Source of the DNA: Microbotryomycetes sp. JL201
Lineage: Eukaryota; Basidiomycota; Microbotryomycetes
Assembly (NCBI GenBank): GCA_033819885.1
Contig: JAQYUZ010000046.1
Location: forward strand, 79,501 to 143,500
Direction: 5' to 3'
Length of the DNA: 64,000 nt
Made by a program: the position numbers and the translations under genes. Below, piece by piece: positions 5,021 through 58,478 of the stretch (positions are counted from its first letter, which is position 1; the number at the start of each line of letters is the position of its first letter). Below the pieces are notes generated by a model. The model was not told the DNA's origin, searched no databases, and was given only the letters and a program-made list of their open reading frames with translations.

Positions 5021-6882
5021 TTAATCGTCTTTGAGCCAATTTGACCAAGAATGCTCTTCAGAGCCAGCAGGCGCGCCTTTGATTGATTGCATGTCTTTCA
5101 GGCTCGGAGACGTGTTCAAAGGAACGAGACCCCATACGATATCAAGCGGGTCTGCGTCTGTGTCTGCGAGACTGATATCGTGCAAGTGGGCCAAGTCATC
5201 GGACGAGAGCGTCAAGGCTTTGAATGCTGTGCGAGACAGTTCGATAGAGCTGTCATGGAGAGAGTGCAGTGAGCTTTGAGGGCGATACTGTCACATGCGT
5301 TGACGTACTTGGGATCACATCTGCAAAGAACGCAACTCGTCAGTTTTCGCCCTCGTCTCCTGGAGTCATCGAAAGCCAACTCACTTTGTGCAAGCTCCGG
5401 TCACCCAGACTTGAACAGTTGCTCCTGTTTGCAGGTTGGAGACCAAGACTGTAGAATTGCATGTGGCATACGTTCCGCTCTGACCGGTACCGACAAACTG
5501 CGAAACAATTGCGTGAGTTCTCGTTCGGATCTGTGCCTGATACTACTTACAACTGGCAATGGAATGGCAGCGACAAAGTCTTGATCTGTCGTGACCGCTC
5601 CGCAAGGCGTCAAATGTCCAGCTGTATCGAAAACAAATCAGTCTAGAGGGTTTGAGAGGACGCGAATCGAACAAAGCTCACAAGCAGAGTATACGTGACT
5701 GCGTCCTTTAAAAGTCTGAAACGCCTCGGTCGCTAAAGACATGCGAAAGGGGACGGACAAGTAATTGACGGCATTGTTGGCTTGCTGCGTATGGGCTGAC
5801 GAGCGGTTGTCAGTTGAAGCCGAGACATGCGAGAGCAGACTCACCGGGAAGAATTGCCTGGGTCGTCGATGTGGTGCTAAGAGTCTGAGTCGCTTCCCAG
5901 TGACCGTTGTCTTGCCCTGGCAGACTGATCAGCTTGTGCAAAGTAATGGTTGCACTCGTCGCCGGGGAAGAGGCGCCACCGGCTTCAATTGCAATAAGCT
6001 CGGTTTGCGTTTGCATACGAGTCATCGTTTGCTTGGAAGCTGTTGGATGGGCAGAGAGAAACATGTCCTCGTCATCGTCTTTGAACCAGTCGACTGGGTT
6101 CCAGCTCCAATCAAAGTCGTCATCTTCATTGATGTTTGATGACAGGTCACTCGGCGAAGCAGTTGGACTTGCGAGGGTCTGAATTGAAGGTGGAGGAGCA
6201 AAACCTGGGTGTGATAAGCCGCTCTGATGGCCGTCTGTTGGCAGAGCTTGACCGCGTTGCAAAGCGTCTCCAACTTCTTTTGATAGTTGCTCGCCGACTC
6301 TGTGATTGTTGAGTACGACGACGACGATGGCGACAAGTCCGATAATGACCACGAGGGAGGCTCCTATGCCGACGTACAATGCTGTGCGACGAGGTGCAGA
6401 TTTTGTCGCCGGAGATGATGGTTGCGACGATCGCTGGAGAAAGCCTGGCAAAGGCAGAGGACGGCGAGTCGAGGCGTTTTCCAGGTCGTACATGGTTGCG
6501 CCGTTGGGGTTTTCGCGATATCGCGAGTCTGTTGCTCTCACGGAGGTAGACGCAGAGTCGAGGCGTGAATAGCGTTGCTATCCGACATGAACCGAGTACG
6601 TCAGGACGTACGACGTTGCGAAAAAGTCTCCGCTCCGCCACTCACGCTGTCGCGTTTTCCTAGAGCGCGCATGACGCGGCTCTTCGGCGGCTTCTCAAGG
6701 TCAAACAGCTCTTGCTCCAGTGCGTGATCTTCAGAGTCAGTTGATGCATCGCTAGAAAGCGAGTTTCGGCGTGCCTGCGATTGTCGAGCGGGCAGAGGAA
6801 GGCGTATGTGGCTGTCATCGTCGTCAGAGTCTGGTGCACGCTTGAGATCGTCGTATCGCTCGTGATCCGAGTACCTTGGCAT
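5021..6882 (-). CDS. Type II membrane protein with C-terminal double-psi beta-barrel (RlpA/expansin-like) domain
   Basis: The chosen start is the ATG at 6882 (MPRYSDHERYDDL). A disordered Ser/Asp-rich N-terminus follows, then a first intron, and a second exon with the span YVGIGASLVVIIGLVAIVVV. A Ser/Thr/Pro-rich stalk leads to a DPBB domain spread over several small exons. Its segments are TPCGAVTTDQDFVAAI, TGQSGTYATCNSTVLV, VWVTGACTKCDP and SIELSRTAFKALT, then IVWGLVP. CG...DxVAA and CxxC...ELS..AF are the fold's usual signatures. Introns lie near 6650-6535, 5850-5810, 5690-5625, 5550-5495, 5395-5330 and 5310-5250. The stop is the TAA at 5021. No signal peptide precedes the span, so an N-in/C-out anchor is inferred, with DPBB facing the wall. 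Paralogs lie at 54.0-56.9 and 57.1-58.5 kb. Catalysis is unlikely to be provable from sequence; many fungal DPBB proteins are non-catalytic. Confidence 0.8.
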
Positions 6883-7994
6883 GTTCGGCTGAAGGATGAG
6901 AGGAACCAAGTCAGTCTGGTGCAAGCAGCGTCCTCTCCTGCTCCGCGGAGTTCCGTAAAGACTCAGGAGCCGACGTGTCTTGTCGTGAAAGCTGTGCTCA
7001 TGTTTACCCTCGAGATTTTCTTTTTTTTTTTTTTGATTATTTTTCAAAGGTGTCACGTGCGACGAACAGTGTTACCGTTGTGATGGACACTTTGGCGTTC
7101 GCACGTGGCAAACGAGTCGCGTGCGGCCGACGCGGGAGGTCTATGCGGGTATTAATAAAGGTAAGAGCAGGCGATGCCCGAACGCGCTGGTGACTTGATC
7201 TGTATGCCAACTAGCTGAAGGGGCTGCCCCGAATAATTCTCTGTGCAGTCAAACAGGGCATCCGCCGCGGCTCCGTCCGTTTTGGCTGAATCCTTACTCC
7301 CCGGACATTGCGCGTCGACGTCGAGTAGTCCGGCGAGGCCAGCGAGCAACACTGTGACGCCGCGTGGTGCCGACCCGTAACGGCGTGTGGCTGCTCAACT
7401 GCGCTCAAGGTCAGTTTCGGTCCTCGTCCCCGCCGCACGCGAACGGACGAGCTCGGCAGTGACGGGCACGCAACGACAGAACGTAACGACGTCGGCAAAT
7501 CCTCGGATAGGCAAGGTGGGCTAGGCTGGACCTGTCACTCGAACTCGACACGCCCTTGTCAGTGTGCAATCAGCGCATCGGCCGAGCACCGAAGCGGCCC
7601 GGCTGCGCGAGACACCACGCCCATGAGCGGCACAAGCGGCGCACACCAGATATGTTTCAGGAAATAACCAAACTGGCCCCATTGGCCGTTGAGCGGCGAA
7701 AGATCGCTTGCGGCCTTCGGTCGTCGCGGCCGCTGGCGTCACCTCGAACCGGCCCCGCGACGCACAAAGGGGCGCGCAACCATGATGGAACATCTGCCAG
7801 GTTCAGAGAGAACATCACGCATCCGCGCAGCACGCCTCTGCGGGACATCATGCCGGCACATCACGCTGCCCGCTCACGCAAGCCACCGCTGACTCGCCAC
7901 ACTTGGCTTATTCATTGGCCATATTTGCATGAAAACAGATTAGAAGCGCATCGAAACCTCCAGCTCGACTCTGACCCAGCGCAAGTCTGCCGCC
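6883..7994. promoter_or_regulatory. Divergent intergenic region between DPBB gene and SWI1-like gene
   Basis: About 1.1 kb separates two divergently transcribed genes, so it should hold both promoters. A long T tract lies at about 7020-7034. The rest is GC-rich with no convincing coding frame. The translations that stay open are Arg/Cys-rich and look like non-coding shadow. Confidence 0.5.
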
Positions 7995-8060
7995 ATGGAC
8001 CTCAACAACCTCGCCGGCCTCGGTGGCAACGCGTTTGGCTATCAGCAGCAGCCTCTGCAA

Positions 8061-8094
<34 letters not shown>

Positions 8095-9226
8095 CTCTCA
8101 ACCTCAACTTTGGCTTTAATGCAATGCAGCAGCGCCCACAGCAGCCACAGCAGCAACACCAACAAGCAGTGCCAACGGCCGCGCAGCTGCAAAACTTTCT
8201 CGCGGCCATGCAGCAACAATCTCAGGCTGCCCAGGGCCTCAACCCGCAACAACAGCAATTTTTGCTGCAGCAGATGGCTCAGCAACAGCAACAGCAACAA
8301 CAAAGGCAGCAACAGTTGCAGCAGCAGCTGGCGCAAATGAAGCCGACGACGCAGAACGCGGACCACATCGCGAACCTGCTCAAGTCAAACCAGCTGGCGA
8401 GTACTCGAGAGTTTATGAGAACGCTGTCTCGTCACTCATTGGCTACGTTTCACAGACGTCTGAGCAATACAACTTGCTCGCGAGCCAGATCACGGCCATG
8501 CAACAGCGGCCGCCATCAGCTCAGCTCAACCAAGCTCAGCAGCTGCAGCAGGCACAATACAACAATGGCAGTAATGCTCTTGCGACTTTGAATCAGCTGC
8601 AGCAACAACAGCAGCAGCAGCAGCGACCGCAGCCGCAAAACCCGTCTGCATTGTTCTCAACACCGACATCTGCTCCGTTGCAGCAGCAGCAACAACCACA
8701 ACAATCACAACAACATCAAGTGCAAGCACAGATGACGAATCCAGGATTAAGCTTGCCCGCTGTTTCGACTGCTACTGACGAGCAAGGACGTATCCCATAC
8801 GGCGCACTCGCCCAGTATGTCGAGGCCGGCAACAAAGTCAAGCAGTATCAGACTCGGATCAATCTGATACAATCGGCTCTGTCGACGGGCATGATTGGCG
8901 GTCAGGACGGCCAACCGGCAAAACCGGTTGCACCAGAGCAGAAAGCTCAGTTCGAGGTGCAACTCAACCAGCTGAGGTGTGTTGACTTGCTGGTTCCCGG
9001 ATTGCTTGTCTGACATGCTTTGACGCAGGCAACAAGGTATCATGTTGCAGCAATTCGCTGCTTCATTCCAAAATCAATGGGGCGTGCAGCGGATACAAAA
9101 CGACATGGCGTCCCACAAGGCAGAGCGCAATGTTAGTCAATTGCCTCGAAGGGAAAAAAAAAATTGCTGAACTCGATGGATCCATTCGTTTTGCAGGCTG
9201 CCGGGGCGGCTGCATCGACGCAGAGC

Positions 9227-9274
<48 letters not shown>

Positions 9275-12086
9275 CAACAACAACAACAACAACAGCAGCA
9301 GCAGCAGCAGCAGCAGATGTCGCAAACGCAGCAAGGCTTGAACGGAAACCTCAACGCAGCTTCTCTTGCCGCTTTCCAAGCCCAGCTCAACGCGAGGAGC
9401 GGGGCAGGTCCTTCCAGCTCGCCTATTCTCGGACAGCAAAACACCGCAATCAACCAGACCCATCAAGCTCTTTTGAATTTTCAGCAACAACAGCAACAGC
9501 AACAGCAGGCACTGTCTCAACAACAACAGCAACAGGTCCAGCTGGGACAGATGAACGTGATTCCTTCAAACTTGTCGACGAGAGTAAGTGATGCGTGCAA
9601 TTTGCCTTGGTCGTTATCCTAACTTGGAACGCGCCTGCAGATGGATCCGAGGCAGTTTATGCAGTCCCTGGTCGAATTCATGAAGCAGCGCAAAGAACCG
9701 CTCACCTCTTTGCCTGCAATCGACGGCAAGAGCGTTGATCTCTACCAACTGTATCAACTCGTCGTCATGTCCGGTGGCAGCAGCACCGTGAGTTGCGCAC
9801 CGTCTTTAGTGCCGCGCGCCCAAAAGCTGACAGTTCGCCGTGGGCTAGGTCAATGCCAAAGGCTTGTGGCACCGTATTGCCAAGCAACTTGGGTTCGACG
9901 TTGATGTGTCCTCGGCGACGATGCACAACGAAAGTTCCCCTGAGACGACGCGCATCTCGATGGAGTTGTCGCAAATCTATCAGAGGTTGTTGCGGCCATA
10001 CGAAGATGCAAGTTTGAGCCGGTCTGTGTCAAGCAGTGCATGTTTTGCTGATAGATATGCCTTTTTAAGAACTTTCAAAAGTCGCTCAACAAGCAGAGGC
10101 AGGCAATTCTTGAAGCACAAGGCATGACCGGCGGCGCTCTCGACAAAGAAAGTCTTGCAAATCTTCAAGCACGCCTGGCAGCGGGCATGGCTCAAGGGAC
10201 TCAAGCAGCAGCGGCCGCTTCTGGATCGCCACAGCTCAACAACCTCGGCTTGCGGCCTAATTCAACTGGCGTGCAACCGTCTCTGGCATCCATCTTGCCC
10301 GGACAAAACACGAATGTGCCTATATTTAATAATCTGCATCAGCAGCAGAACCTGGCAGGTAATTTGAACGCGACTCAGCTCGAGACAATCAGGCAGCAGC
10401 AGCAACAATCGCAGATGCAGCAGCAGCTTTCATCGGCCGCGCCAATGTACCAAACTGGACAAACGAGCCTCGGCCTTGACATGCCCTCCTCGTCATCCTC
10501 GAACCCGGCGGCTGCCGGTCAGCCTCAAGGCCGCGGACAGGTCCCGCTCAATCCCGAGCCTACGCCAGAGCACTTACAGGAAGCACGCAACAAGGTTGCT
10601 CAGATCAAGAAAATGCTGGACGCCCAAGTGCATGCTTACAAGCCGATTGAATTGCCCCAAGACGAAAAACTCAAAATTAGCCAGTACACGAACCAACTTG
10701 CGCCGCTCGTCGACAAGGTCAACGGGTTGATGCCATTGTTTTTGGCCATATCTGGATCAATTGAGAGCGTCATCAGGCTGATGAGATTTGTACGTAGACC
10801 GGCCATGGGTCGGTTCGCCGCATGCTGACGACCGAAATGTTGCGCAGGCGGCTATGTTTGCCGAGCACGTCAAGATGCTTCCGTCGGGTCGCGTCCTCAT
10901 GGACAGACAAACGCTCGCCAACATGAAGGACATGTTTGACAAGACGTTCGCGTACGTCAAATTTCATCACAAGCCGAAGCGAGAAAGTGCGGCCGCCAGC
11001 GCGGACCCGACCCAGTCGCCCCTGCTTAGGGATCAGTTCTCAGTCATGGCTCAGAAGAATGCGGCGCTGCGCGTCGAAGACCTCAAGCCGCCGCCGTTGA
11101 AACGTGCCAGACGGCAGTCCAACTCTGCCACGTCGCCAGCGGCCCCCTCGCCTTCGACGCCCAACTCTCAAGCAGAAGGCATCGAGTCGCCCCCAAAGTC
11201 TGCTGCGACGCCACGTACGAAAGCAGCTGCCAAGCGCGGCCGCAAGAATATTAATGACGCCGCCGCCAATGCTGCCTCGCCGCCGATCAAGACTGACTCG
11301 CCGAGGACGATTGTCGCATCTCCTTTGTCGATGAGCATGGCACCATCCCCTAAACCTATCGTCGCTCCTCCGATGCCGACAGTGCCAGAAGAGGAGCCGC
11401 TTGCCGTCAAACGCAAACGCGAAGCTGAAGAAGCGCAAGCGGATCCCGACTCGTTCATCGAAAAGACATTGCGAGGGCTGACTCGACCGGTTGATGGTTC
11501 ATCTGCGCTGTCACGCGACTTGACGAGCCAGTTGCCGTTTGATTTCCAGCCTGCGTTGCCTCTTGTCACGAACGCAGCATCATCCGTGTCGTTTGTCAAC
11601 AACGGCAATATGCCTTTGCTGAGCATTCCTGGCGTGTCTGTGACAAGCTCGACGTCGATGACATCTGCGCCTGCCATTGCGGGCAATGCGCCGGCCGATC
11701 CGTTCAACTTTGACTTGTTTATCGACGCTTCGGCGGCCGGCTACGTCGACGACGATGTTGCGACTCCAGACCTTGGCAAAGATGGACCAGACGAAGCGTC
11801 ACCTCCCTCGGATGACGAGCGAGAACAAAGTCAGCGAACGGCCGCGTCAAAGTCTTTATCGACGCAAGGCGCTGCACCGGCGTCTGCTTTCATGGCTGGT
11901 CGTGCTGGTGTTGCCGAAAAGACAATGTTTGGTGGACCTGCTGACGGACATGCGGACGACGGTTCGGACAAATGGTGGTTGACGCCAAGCGCGGACGCTT
12001 CCGTTCCAGACACGTTTTCGTGGACGAACGATGCGATGCCGGCAGGGACGTGGTCCATATTCGCGACGGATACTTTTCTTGACTAA
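7995..12086 (+). CDS. Glutamine-rich ARID-domain protein, SWI/SNF subunit Swi1-like
   Basis: This is probably a DNA-binding subunit of the SWI/SNF chromatin remodeller. The start is ATG 7995 (MDLNNLAGLGG). The N-terminal third has repeated Gln runs, the longest about 33 residues encoded by mixed CAG/CAA near 9227-9315. The ARID domain is split by an intron after SGGSST (9641-9787, then 9848 on). Its first part is DPRQFMQSLVEFMKQR and LPAIDGKSVDLYQLYQLV; the second is LWHRIAKQLGFDV and ELSQIYQRLLRPYED. This pattern is close to ARID of Swi1/ARID1. Downstream is a helical region (HLQEARNKVAQIKKML), then a last large exon from about 10848 with KPPPLKRARRQSN, Ser/Pro/Ala-rich stretches and an acidic tail ending TDTFLD. 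Introns fall near 8400-8454, 8976-9028, 9131-9196, 9580-9640, 9788-9847, 10026-10069 and 10792-10847. The family call rests on ARID plus Q-rich context; Med15-like Q-rich factors were considered but lack ARID. Confidence 0.8.
9227..9315 (+). repeat. CAG/CAA trinucleotide run encoding polyglutamine
   Basis: An almost uninterrupted run of glutamine codons inside the SWI1-like gene. It starts and ends as CAG blocks with a CAA block in the middle. Shorter Gln runs occur near 8056-8092, 8280-8325, 8600-8620 and 9482-9535. Confidence 0.95.
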
Positions 12087-12372
12087 TTATTCTTGGTCAC
12101 GCCCGACTTTCTCGGTTCTCGGTTGTATCTTTTTTACCTTTGTTTGTTGCGTTCACATTGATGCGACTCGTCATGTATTTATTTGTAGCTGTTGCTCGTT
12201 GTTTTGTCCGTCTCGTTCCCGGATCATTCGTTGTATTGAAATCGAAACGTGCTCGTGGTCTTCGCCGTAAACGACAAACTCCGAGGAATTGACGGCGCGA
12301 CTCCTGTGCAAGATCGCGCTATCCTTTACGGGTTTGTCGCTTTTGACCTCTTGGTTCATCAGTCAGAATTAA

Positions 12373-13175
12373 ATGTCATCCTCGTCGTCCGAGCAAGACG
12401 AGAAATTAAAGCGTGAGGAGCACCATCACCGACATGGTGTGCGCAAGCGAGTCAAGCGGCATCTGCATCGAGCTCACGAGAGAGTCAAACACGGACATGA
12501 ACAATTCAAAGCGTATCGCAAAGTAAAATTGAAAGCAGGACGTCACGTGGTCAGTCGCACGCTCAATGAGTACATACATTTGCATGGATTGAAGGTTGCT
12601 GACGTTCGAACGGAATGACCCTGTTGAAGCACTTGCACGAGATGTCAAAACGAACAACAGTCATCATTTGCTGTGTTGTGACTGTGTTGATGCTAGGACT
12701 CGGAGGTTTGGTGTACTGGAAAGGCTGGTGGCAAACTTGGTACGACTGGATTCACGACTTTGTGATTTTCCCAGGTCGGTCAACTCGTAGACAGACCTTG
12801 ATCCACAAAAAAGGGGGATTGTTGACAAGCTTCCTTTTTTGCGTTTTCGTTGACGGGAACAAAGAACTCAAGAAACCTTTTGATGCTGAAGAAGCTTTCA
12901 AGTCGGCCACGTCCGCCGTCGTATCTGTCGCGACCAGTCTCGCTTCTGAAGCAAGACGAGTCATAGATAAAGCAGGTGACGGAGCAAAGGATGCAGCGAA
13001 CGACGTCAAGGATTTCTTCAAAGGGATTGGCAAGCGTGACGAGTTTGACAGGCTTGATTATGTCGAGGCGATTGCTACGACAAGCGCTGTATGGGATGGA
13101 GCGACGATCTCGGTTGCACTACAGGCTTCGCGTCCGACATTGAGCATCGTCAAGCCAACTCGGGGGTGTGTATAA
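12373..13175 (+). CDS. Small single-pass membrane protein, unknown
   Basis: I do not recognise this gene. The first exon, from ATG 12373, is strikingly basic and His/Lys-rich (EEHHHRHGVRKRVKR). An intron starts at about 12547 and ends near 12641 (CACGAG acceptor). The next exon encodes one hydrophobic span, VIICCVVTVLMLGLGGLVYW, followed by aromatic WWQTWYDWIHDF. A second intron, about 12773-12860, leads to an amphipathic Ala/Lys/Asp stretch (SLASEARRVIDKAGDG, KDAANDVKDFFKGIG) and the stop at 13173-13175. A basic cytosolic N-terminus before one span suggests type II orientation, like the nearby DPBB genes, but no DPBB is visible. Splice sites are uncertain because the second frame is also open through the putative intron. 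Confidence 0.5.
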
Positions 13176-13545
13176 CATGCATGCGGTTTCACCGGAATGC
13201 AAGTGCGGGCCGGTCGGGCGCAGGCCGAGTCGCGTCTAGAGCCGTTGAATGACTGCTCGACGAATGAATGTATTCTTTTCCGACTGGCACGAGACATGCC
13301 AGTCGTGTCGCAAAGATGCTTGTGTTATATTCACGCGTTTGTAGTCTTCTTGTTGATCGAGTCGAGCGTTCCAACGGCTTTTGCTTGGCGTTGTCGACTG
13401 CGGGCGATCTGTTCATTTTGCGTCGAGGCGCGCGTCTCTCGTTTCCGGTTCAAACGGCAGCACGAACGACCTTGTCCTTTGGCAGAGCGCCCGACTGTTC
13501 TGATCCGCTGGTCCGAGTCGTGTGCCTGCAAGGCAGCAGCAAGGG
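13176..13545. promoter_or_regulatory. Intergenic region upstream of secreted DPBB gene
   Basis: About 370 bases lacking a supported gene; it should contain the promoter of the secreted double-DPBB gene. No specific element is recognised. Confidence 0.4.
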
Positions 13546-15671
13546 ATGCATTCGTCGATCGCGACTGCAGGAGCCGTCGCGCTCTGGCTCACGGCCGCCA
13601 CAACCGTCTCGGCCTCACACGAGCGCAGGCACTTTGCCCGAGACGCTATCCATCGTGTCATTGTCAAAAAGAGTCAGTCCTGCACACATGGCGTGTCGTG
13701 CCTGTCCGCGAATCGTCGTCCGGACTCGGACAAGACGCGACTTGTTTCAGGAATGTTTGCTGATCAACATGGCAATCCACACCCCACTACCGCCTCGGAC
13801 GGCAACGTCACACAGGGCAAGACGTGCCATTGGTCGGTAAGCTTGTCATGGACCCCCCGCGTGTATGCTTCTGCGTGCACTGACCGCGCTTTTTGGTCTG
13901 TGCGCGCACGCGTCCTCTCGCCTGGGCAAATATCCAGCCAAACTTGCTCTGCCCGGCACACTCGACAGGTCCGAAGCAACAGTCGAAAACGCCACAACGA
14001 ACGCGACTGGCAACGATGCACCTCAAACATCAGCGTGGCGCATCGGCGAGGCGCTCTGGTTCAACCAAACTGGCACAAGCACGGGCGCGTGCAAGCGAGT
14101 CCACACGTCAGTGCATAGACTGAACCTGTGTCAATATCATCGAACAGGGTGCTTACGACGTCCCTGTCCTCTACAGCAACGAGGACCTTGTGTTTGGTCT
14201 AAGTGCGCCACTGTACGGATCGCTCGGACAAATCTCACCAGACTGCGGTCGCCTCGTCGAGGTCGAGCACATTGAATCCGGCAAGACGTGAGTTCTCGTT
14301 TGATGTAAACACTCACGCTCATCGCAGGCTCATGCTAATGATACGCTCTCTCACAGCCTCACCTTGCCGGTTACCGACTCGAGCGGCAACGAATACTTTA
14401 CCTTGTCGATCCAAGCTTTCCGTCAATTTGCGCCACTGAGGACAGGACTGCTCGAAATCAAATGGCGATACGTAGGCGATTCGTCTACGGCGGCTGACGG
14501 CGGCGCCTCCAACTCGACCGCTCCGGCCCACAGTGGCAACTCGACAACGACTGCCCGTCCCGCCGGCGCGACGGCAGTCTCTACGGCCACAATCACTTCT
14601 GCTGCATCATCCGCCTCGGTCAACAGTGCCGCCTCGGCCCGCGAAGCCGCAGAATCGCGTGCGTCAGTGTCCTCGGCTCGAGCTGCAGCCGCTGAAGCCA
14701 GCAAGGAAGCTGCCGCTTCATCATCTTCCGCCGCCGCCGCCGCTGCTGCCGTAAGACACTCTTGCTCGAAACAAGCCGAGTCAAATCATCTGATGTTTTG
14801 CTTCCCTTCGTGCCCAGGCATCCGCATCTGCTGTCGCCGAACGCAAAGAGCGCGAAGCCCAAGACGCTCGCAAGAAAGCCGAGCGCGAAGAACGCGAGCG
14901 CAAGGAAGCTGCCGACCGCAAGAAAGCAGCAGCAGAAGAAGAAGCTGCTGCTGCTGCTGCTGCACGTCAGGCTCAAGAGAAGGCTGAACGAGAGGCGAGG
15001 GAAGAGGCTGAGCGCAAGGCGAGGGAGCAAGAGGAGCGCAAGAAACGCGAGGAAGAGGAACGTCAGCGCCGCGAGGAGGAGGAGCGCAAGAGGCGCGAGG
15101 AGGAGGATCGCAAGAAAGCCGAGGAGGATCGCAAGAAGGCCGAGGAGGCCAAGAACAACAGCAACAACGGTGGTGGCAATGTCGTCCGCGGCGGGTTCGC
15201 GACGTTTTATTACCAGAATGGCAACCCTGGGTGAGCTCTCTGCCGTCCTGTTTAGAAGCGTTCTGCGCTGACCACTCCTGCTTTTTAGTCACGTGAGCTC
15301 GACTTGCGTTTCCTCGAACGAAAATAAGTAATGCTGACAACGTGAAACAAGTGCGGCACGGTCGCTGCCGAAAGTGACAAGGTGATTGCCTTGCCGACCA
15401 ACACGTATGCCAACGGAAAGCATTGCGGCAGACAGATTAGGCTCACGCGCACCGACAACGGTCGTTCCGTCGTTGCTACGGTCCGGTGAGTGCAACTAGG
15501 TTGACAGTCTGCGGTCTGCATCACACACACATTGACACTGGTTTCAATTACCCTAGCGACTCTTGCCCGACATGCCATAACGATCAAAGCCTCGACCTCT
15601 CGGTTGGAGCATTCAATGCCATTGCGTCAGAGTCCGAGGGCATGGTCCCGATCGAATGGGTGTGGGCGTAA
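13546..15671 (+). CDS. Secreted protein with two double-psi beta-barrel folds linked by a charged single alpha-helix
   Basis: The chosen start is ATG 13546, because it begins a good signal peptide (MHSSIATAGAVALWLTAATT). A Cys-containing N-terminal part precedes the first DPBB-like segment at about 14150-14490: VLYSNEDLVFGLSAPLYG, ISPDCGRLVEV, YFTLSIQAFRQFA and LLEIKWRYV. A Ser/Thr/Ala linker follows, then about 90 residues of alternating Lys/Arg and Glu at about 14819-15165 (e.g. ERKREEEDRKKAEED), a typical single alpha-helix. A canonical DPBB ends the protein: ATFYYQNGNPG, CGTVAAESDKVIALP, HCGRQIRLTR, DSCPTCHNDQSLDLS and VPIEWVWA. Introns include 13839-13938, about 14101-14147, about 14289-14357, 14752-14818, 15231-15288, 15293-15351 and about 15486-15556. 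The last two bracket a four-base exon (15289-15292) that restores G-H-C-G in the barrel. The first barrel lacks the CxxC pair. It is probably a wall or extracellular-matrix protein. Confidence 0.8.
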
Positions 15672-16106
15672 CGACCGAGCTCGTGACAGTCGCATGTCCG
15701 CATTCGAGCATCAATTTATACCCGAATGTTTCTGTCTTCGCTCTTTCAAACTTTTGACAACCTTTTTTTTTTTTCTTTGCTTTTGATTGACGAGTTTGGT
15801 CTTGTCTTGTGCGTCTGAGACTGTGTTGCAATCGTTTGCAAGATCTGGCAGCTGTGCTGTTGCCCCAGGCTGGATGTGTATTGTGCTCATTATGTCGAAA
15901 GTGGTGCACCGCCGCGATGCGCAGCACTCTTGGCGATTACAAGTCTGGTTCACGCTTGCGGTTGAAGGCAGAGACATTCGCGTCCGACTCTTTGGCTTCC
16001 CAGTTCTTGAGCCGTTCCACCAGCTCGCGCTGTTTTATATTCGCTTGCACTGCGCTCCTTCCGCTCGCTCACTTTCCTGCTTTGACCGGCTGCCGCGTGA
16101 CCGACG
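15672..16106. promoter_or_regulatory. Intergenic region upstream of fimbrin
   Basis: About 430 bases without a supported gene. A T-rich tract at about 15762-15785 follows the DPBB stop and may belong to its 3' processing signals. The remainder is presumed fimbrin promoter. Confidence 0.4.
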
Positions 16107-27625: not shown

Positions 27626-27728
27626 CAGCTTGAATGGAAGTAGCAGGAGGCTTGGTAATTCGGTACAACAGGGTGCATTGCAAGAGTACATGTCCATCTC
27701 GAGTCATGGCACTGATTCATGCAGAAAT

Positions 27729-38339: not shown

Positions 38340-38369
38340 AGTAGTCTCTATCTTGAGATGTTTGATGAA

Positions 38370-41821: not shown

Positions 41822-42158
41822 GAGTCGCGTAAGGTGAAGTTAAAAGAGAGAGAAACCTCCACGTTCTGCTGCATTTACTTTGTGTTGTTGTGCTCCTCTG
41901 TGTCCGCACAGATCGGTATTTGTGCTCGAGCTCGGTAGCGTTGATCGTTGAGCCAGCCCGATATGTTTGCAATGCTGCAAAAGTTGTGCCCCTTTCTGTT
42001 GTGCATCTGAGCGCGATCCAAGGTGTGTCTGTGCACAGCCCTGTGCGCACGAGGGTCGTAAATAGTCATGCGCAGCGCCACGTCTGCGGAATATTGACAA
42101 TCTGACAATTCTTGGCGCGGCGAACAAGACACTTGTCCACGCGCGCGGCTTTGGCGAA
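41822..42158. promoter_or_regulatory. Intergenic region upstream of GH16 gene
   Basis: About 340 bases with no supported gene; presumed GH16 promoter. No element is recognised. Confidence 0.4.
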
Positions 42159-43786: not shown

Positions 43787-43934
43787 ATTCGATATCGACA
43801 TTGTTTTCTGTCAACTTCGGTCTGGTAGGCGTGCATCGCGAACCTACTCGGAAGCGCACGCTTTTGCGCAACCGTATATCATTGTTGTTAATGAAAAATA
43901 TTCCCGCTGTGTCGTCGGACGTTCGCCAATATTC

Positions 43935-44536: not shown

Positions 44537-44887
44537 TGCACCCTGACGCATAGGCCTGGCTGGAAGGAGGCCTGAACGATTTGCCGAGCTATTGTGTTTC
44601 TAGAAAAGACATCTACATAACTCTTGAATGGTATCAGGGGTACGAGCGATTGTCGGTTTCCAAAGCTAAGCAGAAGAAAGACACCTTTTCGAGCGGGCGT
44701 GATGACCGCGAGTGCTGGTCTGTCTGTTGGTTTTTTCCAACCTGAACATTGATGTGATGACAAGTAGATTTAGACAAAGTAAACTGAAAACAACAAAAAA
44801 AGAAACGTGGCGCGGGGGTATCTAAGAAAGGTGGTTTCTCAACCGAGACTATATACGAAGACGGCACGAGCGCTCAAGACCGCCTAA
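44537..44887. other. Convergent intergenic region
   Basis: About 350 bases between the end of the small plus-strand gene and the end of the minus-strand J-domain gene. It is A/T-rich in places (run of A near 44795-44802) and has no supported gene; it probably holds 3' processing signals of both. Confidence 0.45.
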
Positions 44888-46554: not shown

Positions 46555-47270
46555 CTCTCAAGTCAGCTTGCGAGCACTCTTGCGCTACACAACGGGCACG
46601 AGCACTGACCGGCCGAGAGCGCACAAGAGCCCGCGCTCGACGCCAATCCGAGCATTGTCGGCGTCCAGCAAGACCAAAACGAGTGTGCCCAAGAAGTCTC
46701 GAGCCAGTGCTGGCTCAGGCGTCAAGCGGGTCACCTACACGCGCCGTCGAGGGCGTTTTGACGCGAGCCCCGTGCGCACACGCGTGTGCACGAGCGCGGC
46801 ACCCGCAGCCTTGTCTCACGCCTGCAAGTGATCAGGTCCGTCAAGGTCGCCCTGTGGCGGGCGCGTGACCGCGAAGCAGGCGCCAATATCGAACAGAATC
46901 CGTCACGCAAAAGAACAACGTGAAAGCGCTGGCACGGACCGCGTGCGACCCCCTGTCTCTGTCTGGCACGACTGTTCAGGGTTGCGATCGACTCGGGTAG
47001 TCAGTCACATGTTTGAAATGCCATCCGGCTCACTCCATCCACAAGTGGATAGCAGCAGAGTATATGCACGCGTGCCGAGCAGATATTCATCGTGGTCGTA
47101 ATGCAAGCAAGCTTGCTGGCGGACCTCCCTTTCAACAAGCCCAGTTGGCATGCATGCGCGCAAATCTTTTGCCAAAGGACTGAGGTGAGAGGTGTGAGAG
47201 GCTCGAGCGCTCTCCTTCCGGGCGCAATCAGCATCGCCACTAAGCTGACTGTGGTCGGACAGCTTGCGTC
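46555..47270. promoter_or_regulatory. Divergent intergenic region
   Basis: About 715 bases between the divergently transcribed J-domain gene and the HERP-like gene, so both promoters should be here. Readings are Arg/Ser-rich shadows; no gene is supported. Confidence 0.5.
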
Positions 47271-50050: not shown

Positions 50051-50354
50051 TGAATGCAGTCCTTGTTGCAATTGCTGACATTGTCCGAATACTTGGACCA
50101 TTCTTTTTCGAAAGGCGAGAATCCAAATCTCAACCCGCCTTTGGCGGCACATTGCAATGCCGAAATCCATTACGAAATGAGCCTCGAGGACGAGGTCTGG
50201 ACTATGAATGAGGCGCATCGCGACGCGAGAAAGCGCGAGACTCCTCGCGGACTCTTGAGTCTGGCACCGCGTGGCGGTGATGGTCATTCGAGCCCCGCAT
50301 TGCTGTTTACTGACCAAGCGCCTACGAGCTATGTCTATCATGACGGTCTCAAGA

Positions 50355-52495
50355 ATGTCGTCTCCTCATGACATGGCCCACTCGCGGTCAACGTCGTCGC
50401 CATCGAGTCTGTCTCCGTTGAGCCCCGCATCATCTCTCCCGCCAGCCCCGCCTTGTCGTCTACGCCAAAAAAGATCGAAAGTGGGCATGTTTCAGCTTGG
50501 ACCGTCGACAAGCAGCGTTGACGATGACGACCCGTTGACGAATGATACGCCTGGTGCGGGAGCGAAAACTCTTTTGAAAGCGAGTTTGGACAGAGCGGCC
50601 AAGCAACGCGTGCTGTTTGTTCCCGGACAGATGGCACGAGTATTGAGCCCTGAAGAGGCAGAGAGGTTGAGACGAGAGGAAGAAGAGTTGTTGATGAGTT
50701 GCAGCAGCGGGAGACCGAGTCTCGAACAAGACAATGCGCCACAAACGGAAGAGCAAGACGACGCGCCAGGCGATTGGGAGACGGATGAAGAGGAGCACAG
50801 TTTGACGTCGTCTTGCGTAGCTGGCGCCTGCGTCAAACGCGAACCTCGCCCGTTCAAGCGTTCGAGAGTCTTGTTGCGAACCGCGCAATCGCTCTCAAAG
50901 GGTGACGGGGAACGTGTCCATCGTGAGTACTTCGATAATGCGATTTCTGCCCGCCGAGACTCAGCAGTCCTTCAACAGCACTGCTTACTGCCGAGTTGTC
51001 GAAGCGTAACGCCGTTTGTTGCTCCGATCTGGTTAGTTGGCCCGACGATGCGGTGATCAGCGAGCAGCCAGTATCTAGATTGTCTGCTCTTTTCCAGAAC
51101 GAGTCGGCCGGCGTTGACTCCGGTCCACGCAATATTGACGGACGTTTGCCACACGGGTCAGAAACTGTAGGCGACAGCAGGCGAACGCAGCACGATAACG
51201 GCCCGAAGACTCGAAAGCACATTCATTGTGTGACGCAGGACGCCAGCCTCCTCGACCGGGTCGCAACAGATCAGCTACGACCTCGAACGCTCAACAACAA
51301 GGGTTCGACGATTTTGCCGGTGACTGTGCCACTTTTGAGCGACCTGGCTCGTGCACCTGCATCTTTGTCTGCACCTGCGCAAATTCATACTGATGGCTCG
51401 AACGCGAATCCGTCTTTCGTGCGTTCGTCCGGGGGCCCATCTACCATCACGAACGCGTGCACCGAACCAGTACCGGAACTCGTTTTTGCACGACGGCCGA
51501 CAACGACTCGGCAGAGCTCGCTAGGAGGAACGTTCAATCAGCTGTATGCGGGTGACGTTCAAGCAAAGCGTGAACAGGCCATGAGGATCCGCCATTGGCA
51601 AAGGGACAGCGCGAGCAGACGGGGCTCGCGACAGAACAGCAGATCGAGCAGCTCGACGGACCTGGCTTCGATGGCCACAGTGACATCGCAGCTTAGCTCA
51701 ACTGAATGCGTCGACAGTCCAGTGTCGACAACGTCGGATGAGGGCAAACATGGTGAAGAAGACCGCGACGTCGTTTGCGATGCGTTTGGTGAGTCGTGGC
51801 AGGGTTTTTGTCGACTGGAGCAAGCTCTGACAATTTGACGCTTGCCATCGGCAGAGGTCTCGGTATTTGCTTCACCCGGTTCAAACAGCGCCACCTCGCT
51901 TTCTCGATCTTCGGCATCGTCCGTGTTTTGGTCCGCACAGTCTGCTTCGCCCGCGCCCTCGCCTCTGTCACCCGCCTTGTCCAGCGATGACGCAGAACTC
52001 TGCTCGTCACCTCCCAAAAGCTGCGCTGTGGACGGATATACCACGCCGCGAGCCTCGGCGCGTGTCGCTCCTTTTCGTCCGACTTTTCCAGTGACGTCGC
52101 TATCTGCTGTTCCAACGCCAGTCATGTCTCGAGCTTCGTCTCGGGCGCGACCTCAGTCATCAAGTCCTGTGTGGTCAAAGCCTCGAGCGGAAGACGACGT
52201 CGTGGCGGCATTCAACCGACTTGCAACGGCAGAATTGTCGGCCGTACAGGGCGATGAGATTGACCGCGACCAGCGCAAAGTGCGAGCACGCTCTCGTCAA
52301 ACTTCATTTGCTTCTTCCTCTGCGTCGGGCTACTCGACGCCTATGCGAGCGAGCGAGCTGTCAATTCCACTGACAGCGACGGAGCAACGCAACCGTCAAG
52401 AAGCTCTGGCCACGCTGGGCTTGGACGCACAGGGTCAACCTTGTCCAACCCAGTCTTCAGTCATGTTAAACATCAAAAAGATTCTTGGTTTCTAG
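50355..52495 (+). CDS. Disordered Ser/Thr-rich protein, unknown
   Basis: I do not recognise this protein. ATG 50355 opens MSSPHDMAHSRSTSSP. The first exon has VGMFQLGPSTSSVDDDD, a charged segment with SPEEAERLRREEEELL and GDWETDEEEHS, and a basic patch RPFKRSRVLLRTAQ. After an intron starting near 50921 the frame resumes by about 51025 and runs to 51786, with FNQLYAGDVQAKREQAMRI and Ser-rich stretches. A second intron (about 51788-51854) leads to the last exon, which ends AFNRLATAELSAVQGDE, TATEQRNRQEALATLGLDA and MLNIKKILGF. An open reading at 50054-50371 (SKGENPNLNPPLAAHCNAEI) has coding-like composition and may be the true 5' exon. The gene closely follows the HERP-like gene on the same strand. 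Confidence 0.6.
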
Positions 52496-52792
52496 ACAAC
52501 ACGCGCATCGCGCTTCTTCTGCGCTGAATACTCGCATCACAGCGTCATACGTGATTCGTTCTCTTGCACTCTCTCGTAGTGCTTGTATTACAAAACCTCT
52601 CCCTCTCGCGTACGTCCTTGAGTAGAATTTACGCTCGGGCCTCGCCGGCGTCTTTTGCTTCGTGCTCCTTTTGTGCCGCGCCTTGCTTGCCACAGTCACA
52701 ACATAGCTGCTGTATACCTATATCGAGTGTCTCAGTGTCATCGGTCGCCCTTCGCATGAGGTGCAGACGCAGGAGCAAGCCTGTGCACGACA

Positions 52793-53872
52793 ATGGATGC
52801 GACTAGGCCGGCAAAAAGGCGGTGAGTGCCGTTGTTGAGCCTGGGTGCTCACCGAAAACATGCCTGCTCGTGCTAATTTGGTACCCGATGTTGCAGCAAG
52901 ACGCTCCCAAAGCTCGACGACAGCTTTCTCGGCCAAAGTATGTGAAGCACGACATTGGTAGGGCTCGGATTTGCTATTGACGGCTCATTGTTGCTTTCAG
53001 CGCGCTCTGCGGATGTACCAGAGCTTCACCAGGGTCGCTCGCGCGCTATTGCGCACCAGCCAGGACAATGGGCTGCGCACGTGTTTGTAGAGCGTCAGTG
53101 CAGGCTATCACATCGCTGCAGCTCTTCCAATAACGCGTTCATACTTTTCACGCAGTCTTACCAGACGATGCTTCGAGTCAGGTTCTCAAGAACGCCGTCA
53201 AAGATGCGAGCTCGGGCCTCAAAGACTCTTCAGCCACCGTACACTCCTTACTGGACAAGACAAGGCCCGAGAAGGAAGGGCAACTTGCTTCAGAAGACCT
53301 CGTACTCCACATGTCTCTGTCAAGACCGCTCATTTTGCAGACAAATCAGAGAGGCGACTTGAAAGCTGCTGTCGCGAGTGTGGCAAATTCAGCGAAACAG
53401 TCAGTCGACGGGGCATCTCGAGTCGAATGAAAGCGCTCAATGGATCTCACAGACCGTCTTGTTGCTTTGCCTCGTTTGGCTGGCTCGAGAATGACGACAA
53501 GACGCGGCGATTTCTAGGTGTCGAAGTAGGTTCTGGCTATCAACAGGTCAGCATGCTCTCATACCTTATATTGTCGTGGTGATGAAAACTGGTTGCGTGC
53601 AGCTCAAGGCCCTCGTCGCGATACTTGACGAGCAGTTTGTCCGCCTCCGACTGCCCCGTTACTACGACACGCCTCGCTTTCATTGCTCGCTAGCTTGGAC
53701 CATCACGACATCCAACAAAGCTACACCGGACACACACCTTCCATTTGACAACGATGTAATTGAGCTGCTCAATAGCAAGTACGGCTCAGTCTTATCTCAT
53801 GAGCCAATGACACCCTCGCACTTGTGCGTCAAAGTCGGCAAAGTTGTCACTCGTTATCCTTTCGCATCGTAA
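52793..53872 (+). CDS. USB1: U6 snRNA phosphodiesterase Usb1/Mpn1
   Basis: Usb1 is a 2H-type 3'-5' exoribonuclease that trims the U6 snRNA 3' end to a protected terminus in the nucleus. ATG 52793 begins MDATRPAKRR; after short exons comes LDDSFLG. The core reads GRSRAIAHQPGQWAAHVFVE, the family's usual entry, then DDASSQVLKNAVKD. Both 2H catalytic motifs are present: LHMSLSRPLIL (His-x-Ser) and FHCSLAW (His-x-Ser). Between them are ASFGWLENDDKTRRFLGVEV and FVRLRLPRYYDTPRFH. The C-terminus is HLCVKVGKVVTRYPFAS. Introns lie near 52820-52896, 52937-53000, about 53094-53155, about 53398-53455 and 53547-53602. The gene converges on the membrane DPBB gene, with about 145 bases between stops. Confidence 0.88.
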
Positions 53873-54017
53873 CGGCCGTTAAACTTTTGCATCGTATCAA
53901 CAAGCAATTTTGATGGATAACTGTAATATTGCACGCGTTGGAAAATAAGAATTAAAAACCAAACGAGTTCAAACAAGTCCGTCTACGAAGTGTTTGCCCG
54001 TGCTCCACCGCGATTCC

Positions 54018-56856
54018 TCATTTTTCGTGCCATTGTCCGTCGTTGCTTGCATCTCGGTCATTGTCTTGCACCCTTTCCTCGTGGTATCTGCCGTCGTCGT
54101 TGACGTCGTGCTCCCCACCAGATGATGGCCCGCCATCGCCGACAAGCAGGGTTTTCGCCTCTTGGCCCTCTTGCTGCTGTTGCTGAGGCTCTGCGCGCTC
54201 GCCCGAAGCAGAAGGCGCTTGACCACTGATTTCGTCGAATGGTTTCCCAGCGAGACGCTCAGCTTGTCCAGGCTCGCCTGCCCCAAAAGCCGGAACAGGG
54301 TCGGCGATACCGTCTTGCAAATCTGGGGGCATCAGCGAGGCGTATCGTTCATCGTCCCACCACCATTGAACCTCCAAGACTCCTTGATCGAGCAGGCCGA
54401 GGTTTGAAAACGCCGTCTTTGACAAGTCAAGAGAAAAGTCTCTTCGACATCTGAGACATGCAAACAGTCAGCAACGCTTGAGCCGCAAGCGCCCGAGCTT
54501 GGAATGCTCACAATGGGCAATTGTCTTGAATGACCACGTCAACAGTGTTTCCGGACACAGGATTCATGCTATGATGCAAAAGCACTCAGCATGGGTTGTT
54601 GAGAGCCCAAAAATGACCAACTCACACGTGAATAAGCGCGCCGCAGAATGGAGAGACCGTGCCATTTGATCCGTACTGATAATAAAGAAACCATCAGCGA
54701 CACAATGCTCAAGATAACTTGTCGTCACTGACCAGGTCGGGATGCAGGGCAGCGACCATGTCCGTGTCACTGAAGACTGTGTGACACGCACTGAGATGCT
54801 GCGAGCTCTCGAACCAGGTAGCTTTGCAATCTCGTAGTCAGAAACAAAGCAAGACGTACGCAAGGCGAAATACTCACCTCGACCTTGATAATGGACGCCA
54901 GTAAGCCCGAAATTGACGGCACCGGCTGCAGTTGTCTGATTCGTGCTGCTCGGAATTGGCGGAGCAGCAGATTGACCGGGTGCATTCGAAGGCGACAGGT
55001 TGCTATTGGCCGAACTCGAAATCGCGGCCGGACCGGTCTTGACAATTGGCGTGGGGAGAAAAGTGGCCGTGATGTGGTCTGTCTGCTTATCCAAAGGATT
55101 TTGCCTGACATCACTGTTATTCTGCTGGTCTTGATGTAATCCAGGCAGCCGCGTCTGTGTGGCATGCGGCACAGTCTGAATTGAGCCAACCCACTGTGCG
55201 TGAGACAGAATATGATCAGTCTGACACTGCGGCTTTGCTTGTTTTGCACGTACATCATCGCCTTGAACAGTCTTGCTTGGTTGAGCAATCTGAGTCTGAT
55301 AAGCCTTGTCCGTTTTCGGAGGGGCCTGAAACATCACCGAGTCAGTCAGAGCAATTTAGAGCAAAAGAGCAACCATGCAGAATACAATAGACTTTACATC
55401 TTTTGAGTCTCTTTGTTGAGTGGGCTGAGCTTGTGACTTGTCGGTGAACGGGGTAAAGTCGTCGTCAAAGGTCGCAGTCATCTCCTGCGCAGAACGAGTG
55501 AAAAACCACGCAAGAACAAGCGTCCAGCTCGAAAGCGCACCTTTTTCTCGTCAAATTTACTTCCTTGGGCCCCGGACAAAGATGTAGATACGTGATCAGG
55601 CTCGCTCGTTTCGAATGCGCTCAGCTTGCCGTCCTGAATTTCGGTAGCGGCAAGGGTGGTCGTGTGATCGACAACCTTACTTGTCTGCGTCGAAGCGTCA
55701 TGCTCGCTCGATGCGATCTTGTCTGTTGGCGCCGTCTTGTCCGTCGCGAGCTTATGAATCATTCCGTCAGAGAGAGTGGCGGTGGCAGAGTCGGCGGTCT
55801 GAATTGAAGACGAGCTAGAAGGAGCGGAAGCCGACGCTTGCGTCGCTTTTGACTCGTGGACGAGATCAGACGCAGAGTCCGAGGCCGCCAGGCCATCTGC
55901 CGAAAACGACAAAGCAAGCCTGGATGTAGTAGCCATGGCTTTGAGCTCGTTTGTCGGGAGGGCCGTGTTCACCTTCGAGCTTGCGGTAGCAGAAGAGGAC
56001 AATGTAGAGCCAGTTTTTGTGTCTGTTGAATTGGCGGAGTTGGCCGAAAACATGTCGCTGTCGTCTGCGCTCTTGTTGTCGTCCTTGTTCTTGTTGTAGA
56101 CGACGATACCAATTATGACACCGATGACGAGAATCACGATGAGCGCGCCGACGAGCCACCACTTGTATTTCGAAAAGAACCCCTCGTCCTTTTCAGTCTC
56201 TTTCTCCTGCGTTATGGGCATCGCCTTGTCTCGTTTACTGCGAGTCGATGACGATCGATGCGCTGGCTTGGATGTACGTGCAATGGCGGGGGGAGGCAGC
56301 GCGGAGCCATCGTCACTGAGATGGCCGTCGCTGTCTGACGCGCTGAGAAAGTCGTCTTGCTTGTCACGAACAGGCGCATACTGCAGAGAGAATCGGGTCA
56401 GCGAGCGAGTTCAGGGAACTAAAATTCACTGATCACTCACCGCTGGACCCCCTTGTGTGCTAGTCAAAGGCTTTTTGGCGAGCTCAAACTGGCGCGTGCG
56501 CGCGCTGCCAGCTGCTGCTCGGTCAGTGTTGCGCGCGCTGCTTTGACGGCTGCGGTTATTACTCCTCTCGGATCGCGCTGGAAGAGATCGCATCGTGCGC
56601 TGCAGTTCGTCTTCATCAGCAGAGGCATGTCTCGCCAGCTGAGGCTGAAAAGGCTTCGACTTGCCGAATCACCTCGCTCGAGGTCTCGCTCTCGCGTGTT
56701 GCTATGCTCGCGCTCGGTGCTCGATTCGCTCATATCAGTTGAAAAGTCTGCCGAGTCCGTGTCAGAGTTGGACAAGTCATCTGTCGAGGCACGTCGAGGG
56801 CGCGGACGCTCAGAGTCTGCGGCAACGCCACGCGACCGCGAGCCAGAGCGCGACAT
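54018..56856 (-). CDS. Type II membrane protein with C-terminal double-psi beta-barrel domain
   Basis: ATG 56856 starts MSRSGSRSRGVAADSE, a Ser/Arg-rich cytosolic region. Part of it (SADEDELQRTMRSLPARSER) is read after a frame change that needs one more short intron. After an intron at about 56440-56382, YAPVRDKQDDFLSASDSDG leads to MPITQEKETEKDEG and the span WLVGALIVILVIGVIIGIVV. A long Ser/Thr/Ala stalk and further exons (54.9-55.5 kb) follow. The DPBB domain comprises TWFESSQHLSACHTVFSDT, DMVAALHPDL, YGSNGTVSPFCGALIHV, VVIQDNCPL, FSLDLSKTAFSNLG and VLEVQWWW. Its conserved Cys and Asp positions (C...D.VAA; DNCPL; LDLS..AF) are kept. A Gln/Glu-rich tail ends GQWHEK. It sits directly downstream of a paralog with the same strand and plan. 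Confidence 0.8.
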
Positions 56857-57137
56857 CTTTGCAAGAGTGTGTCATCAGCTATGCATGTAGACGACTGAGA
56901 GGTCCCTTTCGTACCTTGTTATGCGTGAAGAAAAGAAGACACGGGAGCGAACCGCGTTGCACTGTTCTGCTCCGCGGAGGGCAACTCCTTACCGCGAGCG
57001 GCGAGCAGCGCAGAGCGGTGCAGGCGATGTAGAGTCGGTAATCTCAAATAGATAAGCCGCAAAACCTGAATTGGTACGAGTATTCGAATTCACGGCGCAG
57101 CCACATGGGAAAGAAACAGGATATAGAGAACAAAAAA
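56857..57137. promoter_or_regulatory. Spacer between adjacent DPBB genes
   Basis: About 280 bases between the end of the 57-58.5 kb DPBB gene and the start of the 54-56.9 kb one, both on the minus strand. It should hold the terminator of the first and promoter of the second. No element is identified. Confidence 0.4.
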
Positions 57138-58478
57138 CTAGGGTTTTTGGGCGTGCTCATGCTCAACCTGCTTGGTTTCTTTCGACCATTGTGCGCCAGT
57201 CTGGAATGCAGTTGGCACGAAACTTTCAATGGATGGCTTCGGCTGCTCGTCTTTGGGCGTAAACCACCATTGGACGTTCTTAGCGATGCCAACGTCTGCG
57301 TCACCAACAAGCTCGTAGAATGCACGAGCAGACAGGTCGAGCTCATACTTGCGACACCGCTCGCAAACACCTTCAACGGTGAGATGGCGAGTCTGGTCCG
57401 TTTCAGGATTCCAGACGGTGACCCATTTGCCACAGTACTTCGAGATGCGGTCAAGCTTGCCATACTGCATGCACGAAGGATCGTGAGTTGATTCGTTCGC
57501 CACGACCGACGCAACAGCTGACCAGTTCTGCCGAAATATGCACAACGTAATCGTGATCGAACGACTTGCTCAAGCACGTGGTGATGCCCTGATCGGAGGA
57601 AAACCAGGTAGCCTGTACAGCTTGAGTTGCAATCGAAACGGCTTTCGTTTTCGAAGGCTTGTCGTCAGCGTCCATGTCCGTCTTTGTTGGCGCGTTCGCC
57701 TTTGTGTTTGTGCGCGTGGGCATGTTGGGCACGTCGTCTGTTGAGTCGCGAGGGTGACCACTCGCGATCATGGTGGATATATCAGTTTCGTTGGGTTCAA
57801 TTGTGTTTGACGTGGCTGTTGCTGTCGCGTTGTGCACGGACGAGTTGAGCGTTACTGTTGAGCCTGACGAGTCTGGGGAAAGCGTCTCGGACGAGGGTAA
57901 AGATGTAGACGAGTCCAATCTTACGCCTGTGACTGTCAACGAAGCCGCCATGTCGGTGACGGCCGTCGATTCTGTCAAGTTCGGTCGATGTGGGACTTCT
58001 GCCGAATCTTTTGTCACGAGCTTGTAGATCTGACGGGCAAAGAGGGATTTATGAAGCGTCACAATTAATCCGTAGCTTGACTGCTTACCAGGAAACCACC
58101 TGCTGTGAGCAAGAGCAGGACGAGCACGCCGACGATGACCCAGAGCCATGTCCTGCTGCCATTTGTGCGCGCCAGACCTGGCCTGCTTGTCGGTGCTGGA
58201 TTCACAGAAGGAGGTTTGCGAGACTTTCTCTGATGCATCGGCGGCGGCTCATCGTGCGACTGGTCGGTGTCCGAATCGTGGTGGATCGAGGCATACTCGC
58301 GTTTCTTGTCTGATGAGCGTCCTCCGACTCTTTTCTCTTCGTCTTTGTCGTCTCCTGAATGATCTGTGTGCTCGTCATCCGTGTTACTGTCAGGATGGCG
58401 ATCCGACTCGTCGCTGCTGCTCGGCGGACGCGCCGAAGAGGGCTTTTTGCTTGTCTCTGATGTTCGGGATGCGGGCAT
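57138..58478 (-). CDS. Type II membrane protein with C-terminal double-psi beta-barrel domain
   Basis: ATG 58478 starts MPASRTSETSKKPSSA. A disordered Ser/Asp/Lys-rich head precedes the span WLWVIVGVLVLLLLTAGGF. An intron (about 58089-58031) joins GGFL to IYKLVTKDSAEV. A Ser/Thr stalk with several N-x-S/T sites follows. The DPBB comprises ATWFSSDQGITTCLSKSFDH, DYVVHISAEL, YGKLDRISKYCGKWVTVWN, LTVEGVCERCRKYELDLS, ARAFYELV and IAKNVQWWF. One intron at about 57509-57452 splits it. The tail ends KQVEHEHAQKP. Like its neighbour at 54-56.9 kb it has no signal peptide before the span, so an N-in/C-out topology is inferred. The pair is diverged well beyond recent duplication. The closest functional idea is cell-surface glucan/chitin binding; enzymatic activity is not evident. 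Confidence 0.82.

What the first reader, a model, noticed from the sequence alone, without database searches (positions are those of the whole stretch)
5021..58478. Four DPBB genes, five barrels, in one 64-kb window
Genes at 5.0-6.9, 13.5-15.7, 54.0-56.9 and 57.1-58.5 kb all encode RlpA/expansin-like barrels. Three share the rare plan of disordered cytosolic head, one span, Ser/Thr stalk and C-terminal barrel. A surface-tethered barrel family with a large cytosolic tail could link wall contact to cytosolic signalling, a receptor-like role not usually ascribed to fungal DPBB proteins.
Basis: partly seen in the sequence, partly recalled or inferred. Interest (0 to 1): 0.8.

Follow-up and report, generated by a model that had tools for sequence, protein, structure and literature searches.

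The report
Membrane-tethered loosenin-like wall proteins
A basidiomycete yeast carries, near one another, genes for wall-loosening-type barrel proteins, three of them apparently held in the membrane behind a long disordered head, and two of those three have lost the residue thought to do the loosening.

Summary
Confirmed: four genes and five double-psi beta-barrels (DPBB) lie at the stated places in a Microbotryomycetes sp. JL201 contig. NCBI's proteins for A and D equal my models; C differs only in a head segment. A profile of other DPBBs finds the barrels of A, C, D and the first of B; B's second passes Pfam. A fifth DPBB gene starts about 8 kb left of the window; the genome holds at least 12. 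A, C and D have a head, one span, a stalk and a loosenin-like barrel; orthologues in two other Microbotryomycetes keep the plan. B reads as secreted, with two barrels. New: the Asp reported as strictly conserved and essential in microbial expansin-related proteins is Gly in A and D and in their orthologues, but kept in 13 of the genome's 15 aligned barrels, C included; A also lacks the paired Thr. Barrels of A and D stay 69-76% identical to their orthologues. Best reading: tethered loosenin-like wall proteins, C possibly still loosening, A and D only binding, heads mostly for sorting. The receptor idea has no positive evidence here. Structure prediction was too weak to decide. New variant of a known kind.

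The parts
5021..6882 (-). Gene A: single-span protein with N-terminal head, 502 aa, 7 exons
   Evidence: identical to NCBI OIV83_005498 = P0005
6311..6382 (-). Gene A membrane span (residues 145-168)
   Evidence: helix, 10-residue blocks at pLDDT 72-92
5123..5715 (-). Gene A DPBB (residues 351-469); Thr12-like is His, Asp82-like is Gly
13546..15671 (+). Gene B: two-DPBB protein with a signal-peptide-like start (by eye), 542 aa, 8 exons including a 4-nt microexon
   Evidence: the exon 1 donor and the 37-nt intron 2 are the least certain parts
14036..14474 (+). Gene B first DPBB (residues 119-229), CxxC pair lost, Asp kept
14818..15180 (+). Gene B Ala-rich and charged (Lys/Arg/Glu) linker between the barrels
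   Evidence: read directly
15184..15668 (+). Gene B second DPBB (residues 444-542), canonical, Thr and Asp kept
54018..56856 (-). Gene C: single-span protein with N-terminal head, 765 aa in my model, 10 exons
   Evidence: NCBI OIV83_005514 = P0003 (742 aa) differs in one head segment; JL221 orthologue P0004 reads MRSMPSR where my model reads MRSLPAR, a segment absent from P0003
56096..56161 (-). Gene C membrane span (residues 192-213)
54351..54893 (-). Gene C DPBB (residues 552-655), Thr and Asp kept; a 110-residue tail follows
57138..58478 (-). Gene D: single-span protein with N-terminal head, 407 aa, 3 exons
   Evidence: identical to NCBI OIV83_005515 = P0001
58024..58151 (-). Gene D membrane span (residues 110-132), interrupted by intron 1
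57258..57627 (-). Gene D DPBB (residues 265-368); Thr kept, Asp82-like is Gly

Best explanation
A, C and D are type II membrane proteins that hold a loosenin-like DPBB on a stalk on the outer (or lumenal) side of the membrane, so that the barrel meets the fungus's own wall polymer (chitin or glucan) next to the membrane. C keeps the Thr/Asp pair and probably still loosens polymer contacts locally. A and D have lost the Asp and most likely bind wall polymer without loosening it, as membrane-to-wall linkers. The long disordered heads most likely direct where the protein goes (YxxPhi-type sorting). B is a separate protein, apparently secreted, with two barrels. Shown: sequence family, single span, conserved plan, loss and retention of the Asp. 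Inferred: orientation (flank charge in A and D, glycosylation sequons in the stalks of D and of C's orthologue, Cys only in barrels), the polymer, and the roles of head and barrel.
For: Models equal to NCBI's for A and D and nearly so for C. DPBB profile matches with decoys. C, D and A barrels match PDB 9ce9 by sequence (6e-12, 5e-5, 9e-5), which names as the fungal loosenin PcaLOOL12. One span per protein; N-side flank +3 in A and D against -1 and +1 on the C side; no Cys outside the barrel in the six proteins with that printout. Asp kept in 13 of 15 JL201 barrels, Gly in A and D and in both their orthologues. Barrel identity to the orthologue 82/118 (A), 84/104 (C), 79/104 (D), against 0.31-0.46 in stalks, so the Asp-less barrels are still under constraint. 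PMC9888185 (passages): Thr12 and Asp82 strictly conserved among microbial expansin-related proteins, Asp82Ala inactive, loosenins bind chitin. PMC12779228 (passages): Asp82 conserved in all its fungal sequences. YxxPhi in 7 of 7 complete heads (C of JL201 from the shuffle-test line only).
Against: No localisation, binding or expression data. Flank charge does not set the orientation of C (-2 and -1 in its JL221 orthologue). The YxxPhi motif was chosen after reading the heads; shuffled heads of A hold one 64% of the time (C 10%, D 7%, C15 orthologue 25%; product 0.001). Asp is not universal in relatives: two Streptomyces proteins have Asn there. Structure models are weak (barrel blocks at pLDDT 47-69 in A, 34-59 in D), with no Foldseek match at E 0.001 or better. 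Pair profiles of A and D match 9ce9 less well than single sequences do (0.0016, 0.0098). A Golgi protein would fit the same topology.
Confidence: 0.5

Rival explanations
1. Wall-contact receptors: barrel binding or stalk tension is passed to the cytosolic head, which recruits signalling proteins, like an inverted WSC/Mid2-type sensor (that family recalled).
For: Barrel on a stalk, single span, large head; conserved loss of the Asp in A and D points to binding without loosening; heads are at least as conserved as stalks between orthologues: 0.48 and 0.46 in A, 0.55 and 0.31 in C, 0.41 and 0.32 in D.
Against: No signalling domain over Pfam's cut-off; heads of A, C and D are not recognisably related; no partner known.
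Confidence: 0.15
2. Secretory-pathway (Golgi/ER) wall-biosynthesis factors, in the manner of Kre6: the barrel works on nascent glycans in the lumen and little reaches the surface.
For: Same topology as Kre6, which PMC11221361 describes as a type II membrane protein around the nucleus, in ER, Golgi and cell periphery (passages); YxxPhi motifs in the heads.
Against: Barrels are loosenin-like, and loosenins are described with an N-terminal secretion signal (passages); no glycosidase-family match.
Confidence: 0.2
3. A and D are decaying copies kept by accident beside a working C.
For: Loss of the Asp, and of the Thr in A.
Against: The same Gly in the orthologues; the four barrel Cys kept; barrel identity 0.69 and 0.76 between species, far above the stalks.
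Confidence: 0.05
4. The spans and barrels belong to separate genes joined by mistake.
For: No transcripts were available.
Against: Introns of 49-72 nt with GT-AG ends in A, C and D; NCBI's models agree; the same fusion in three orthologues from two other genomes.
Confidence: 0.03

Closest known systems
Fungal loosenins (PcaLOOL12, PDB 9ce9; LOOS1)
   Same: A single DPBB without expansin D2; C keeps the Thr/Asp pair and four Cys
   Different: Here joined to a head, span and stalk; A and D lack the Asp
Expansins (BsEXLX1 and relatives)
   Same: DPBB (D1) homology of C: 2bh0 at E 0.026, EXLX1 7wvr at 1.7e-9
   Different: No D2/CBM63-type match in Pfam up to E 1
Kre6 (yeast type II membrane protein of beta-1,6-glucan synthesis)
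   Same: Topology (PMC11221361, passages)
   Different: Different lumenal domain; sequence relation not compared directly
WSC/Mid2 wall-stress sensors (recalled)
   Same: Single span, Ser/Thr stalk, wall-facing tip
   Different: Those are type I with a short C-terminal tail; here the N-terminus would be cytosolic and the tip is a DPBB
Wallemia ichthyophaga expansin-like proteins
   Same: Basidiomycete DPBB proteins
   Different: Described with a signal peptide (PMC3849046, passage)

Membership tests
DPBB_1 (PF03330) | Over the Pfam gathering score | tested here: inconclusive
   Met by B (47.3 bits) and C (35.1) against 28.8; not met by A (18.9) or D (no hit in the full protein). A profile of other barrels finds A, C, D and B's first barrel
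DPBB fold | Predicted structure matches solved DPBBs | tested here: inconclusive
Fungal loosenins | Sequence relation to a solved loosenin | tested here: met
   9ce9: C 6e-12, D 5e-5, A 9e-5; pair profiles 0.0016 for A and 0.0098 for D. B's first barrel did not list 9ce9 up to E 1
Fungal loosenins | Asp82-equivalent of the presumed active site | tested here: not met
   Kept in C and in both barrels of B; Gly in A and D and their orthologues, so A and D are relatives and are not filed as loosenins
Fungal loosenins | Secreted by an N-terminal signal | tested here: not met
   A, C and D have one internal span after a head of 112 to about 190 residues, by hydropathy
Fungal loosenins | Weakens cellulose or chitin networks without lysis | not testable with these tools
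   Needs protein
Expansins | C-terminal D2/CBM63 domain | tested here: not met
   No such Pfam match up to E 1 in the four proteins
Wall-sensor receptors | Cytosolic part that recruits a signalling partner | not testable with these tools
   No signalling domain over cut-off; partners need experiments
Kre6-like proteins | Lumenal glycosidase-type domain | tested here: not met
   No glycosidase-family match in the four proteins

The most novel reading that the evidence does not exclude
A split toolkit at the membrane: one tethered loosenin (C) that can still loosen wall polymer, and tethered 'pseudo-loosenins' (A, D), in which the loosening residue is gone and the binding barrel kept, that report wall contact or tension to their cytosolic heads. 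To my knowledge it would be the first membrane-tethered, action-dead expansin-type barrel used as a wall sensor.
Probability: 0.13. Interest if true: 0.75.

Novelty: new variant of a known kind. Interest (0 to 1): 0.42.

Why it matters
[quoted passage not shown] Tethering would fix the barrel beside the cell's own wall, so these proteins point to a role there rather than in plant decay. Natural Asp-to-Gly barrels, kept between species and sitting beside an Asp-bearing paralogue, make the separation of binding from loosening directly testable.

Tried and rejected
Structure prediction of A and D with eight-row alignments: barrel blocks at pLDDT 47-69 (A) and 34-59 (D), no Foldseek match at E 0.001 or better; VIA-align rows for A are middling and mixed. 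I do not use these for the fold claim. Shared head homology between A, C and D: not found by profile comparison (four raw pairwise tests were reached by 9, 21, 28 and 24 of 300 shuffles). One recent tandem burst as the cause of the cluster: not supported, since B's second barrel groups with C37b and X2 (98) away from A, C and D; C and D group at 71 only. Shared introns: A, C and D have a phase-0 intron at one aligned place, and A and C also a phase-2 intron before the last barrel Cys; but by my reading of the C3 DNA printed the first is in C3 too, so it is not specific to the tethered genes. Literature: searches listed no paper whose title or abstract start names a membrane-tethered fungal DPBB protein; beyond listings I saw only passages of PMC9888185, PMC12779228, PMC11221361, PMC4372547, PMC3849046 and PMC10132060. 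This is no proof of absence. Breadth in other fungi: three protein searches gave 2, 2 and 7 proteins, the last scoring only the 7995 candidates that shared most words; distant relatives can be missed.

Cuts made: the flank and Cys printout was skipped for C of JL201 (both models) and for B; some paralogue barrels are partial (X1, C12a1 and C37a lack the start; C15 of JL201, X2, C37b and C12a1 lack the end). P0007 was left out of the head tests because NCBI's model lacks the span. B's second barrel is itself in the profile, so that call does not test it.
Full report
Where it is. The window is the right end (79,501-143,500) of contig C41 of a 17.15-Mb genome in 92 contigs. Proteins A, C and D carry NCBI names of Microbotryomycetes sp. 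JL201, an unclassified Pucciniomycotina basidiomycete.

The genes. I read the exons by hand. A has 7, C 10, D 3 and B 8 exons, with introns of 49-72 nt in A, C and D and 37-136 nt in B. A and D equal the NCBI proteins letter for letter; C differs in one head segment of 36 residues against NCBI's 13, where the JL221 orthologue P0004 has sequence like my model's and NCBI's has none. B's first donor (GTCGGT) and its 37-nt second intron are uncertain.

The barrels. Pfam's DPBB_1 passes its cut-off only in B and C; A is below it and D is missed in the full protein. A profile of 11 other barrels (eight from JL201, one from NB124-2, two from Streptomyces), without A, C, D or B's first barrel, finds D at 7e-12, A at 6e-10, C at 5e-23 and B's first barrel at 1e-7. 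The best of 500 shuffled decoys is 2.1; of 614 window frames the seven below E 1 all lie in the four genes. By sequence C, D and A match PDB 9ce9, named as loosenin PcaLOOL12, at 6e-12, 5e-5 and 9e-5; two-row profiles of A and D gave weaker values, 0.0016 and 0.0098. Structure prediction did not add to this.

The plan. A, C and D each have one strong hydrophobic span, after heads of 149 (A, hydropathy window), about 190 (C) and 112 (D) residues rich in Ser/Thr/Pro and charges; stalks are 21% (A), 25% (C's JL221 orthologue) and 32% (D) Ser/Thr. C has 110 residues after its barrel, D 39 and A 33. Orthologues keep the plan: P0006 (NB124-2) for A, P0004 and P0002 (JL221) for C and D. C and D have consecutive locus tags in both JL201 and JL221. 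Orthologue identity for head/stalk/barrel is 0.48/0.46/0.69 in A, 0.55/0.31/0.81 in C and 0.41/0.32/0.76 in D. Flank charges favour an N-terminus inside in A and D but not in C; D and C's JL221 orthologue have N-glycosylation sequons in the stalk, A none.

The active-site pair. PMC9888185 (passages) states that Thr12 and Asp82 of BsEXLX1 are strictly conserved in microbial expansin-related proteins and that Asp82Ala abolishes activity; PMC12779228 (passages) finds Asp82 in all its fungal sequences. In my alignment Asp is kept in 13 of 15 JL201 barrels, among them four that have lost the CxxC pair; it is Gly in A and D, and in their orthologues. The Thr is kept in C and D; it is His in A and Ala in A's orthologue. 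Two Streptomyces relatives have Asn at the Asp place. The four Cys are kept in A, C and D.

Context. The genome has at least 12 DPBB genes: five on C41 (one, with two barrels, starting about 8 kb left of the window), two on C12, two on C37, one each on C3, C15 and C56. Gene outlines outside the window were read by eye. The C15 gene reads with a short head and a span in the DNA, as its NB124-2 orthologue P0008 does, so the tether occurs outside the window as well; on the tree it groups with the secreted-type C3 (84), which suggests a separate origin. Beside the DPBB genes lie unrelated ones: of 20 long frames scanned, 8 matched Pfam, to Med15, CH, sugar transporter, forkhead, AMP-binding, DnaJ, CDP-alcohol transferase and fungal kinase families. 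Four or more of 12 genes within 64 kb came up in 1 of 20,000 random placements.

Reading. The best-supported account is a set of membrane-tethered loosenin-like proteins: C able in principle to loosen wall polymer beside the membrane, A and D binders that have lost the key residue but remain constrained. The heads most likely serve sorting: 7 of 7 complete heads have a YxxPhi motif, but the motif was picked after reading and is uninformative in A. A receptor role remains possible and is the most novel reading; nothing here shows it.

Noticed in passing
window 15289-15292 (+): A 4-nt microexon (TCAC) in gene B between introns of 58 and 59 nt; it keeps the frame into the barrel's conserved CG. 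No transcript was seen.
   Followed up: partly
L006, C41:69.8-71.6 kb, left of the window: A sibling of gene B: signal-peptide-like start, a first barrel without CxxC, a Thr/Ala-rich linker and a second barrel.
   Followed up: partly
L011, C15:86.5-87.4 kb: NCBI's model P0007 starts after the span and runs on into PF13532 (AlkB-like, name recalled); the NB124-2 orthologue P0008 has the span and ends after the barrel, so P0007 looks misjoined.
   Followed up: partly
window 6083-6103 (-), gene A stalk: WNPVDWF, flanked by acidic residues, is kept in the NB124-2 orthologue within a variable stalk.
   Followed up: no
window 55161-55181 (C) and 57724-57741 (D), both -: Short stalk islands (IQTVPHA in C, TDDVPN in D) are kept between JL201 and JL221.
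   Followed up: no
   Followed up: no
L008 (C37) and L009/L013 (C12): Two more places where two DPBB genes lie close together, so local clustering of this family recurs in the genome.
   Followed up: partly
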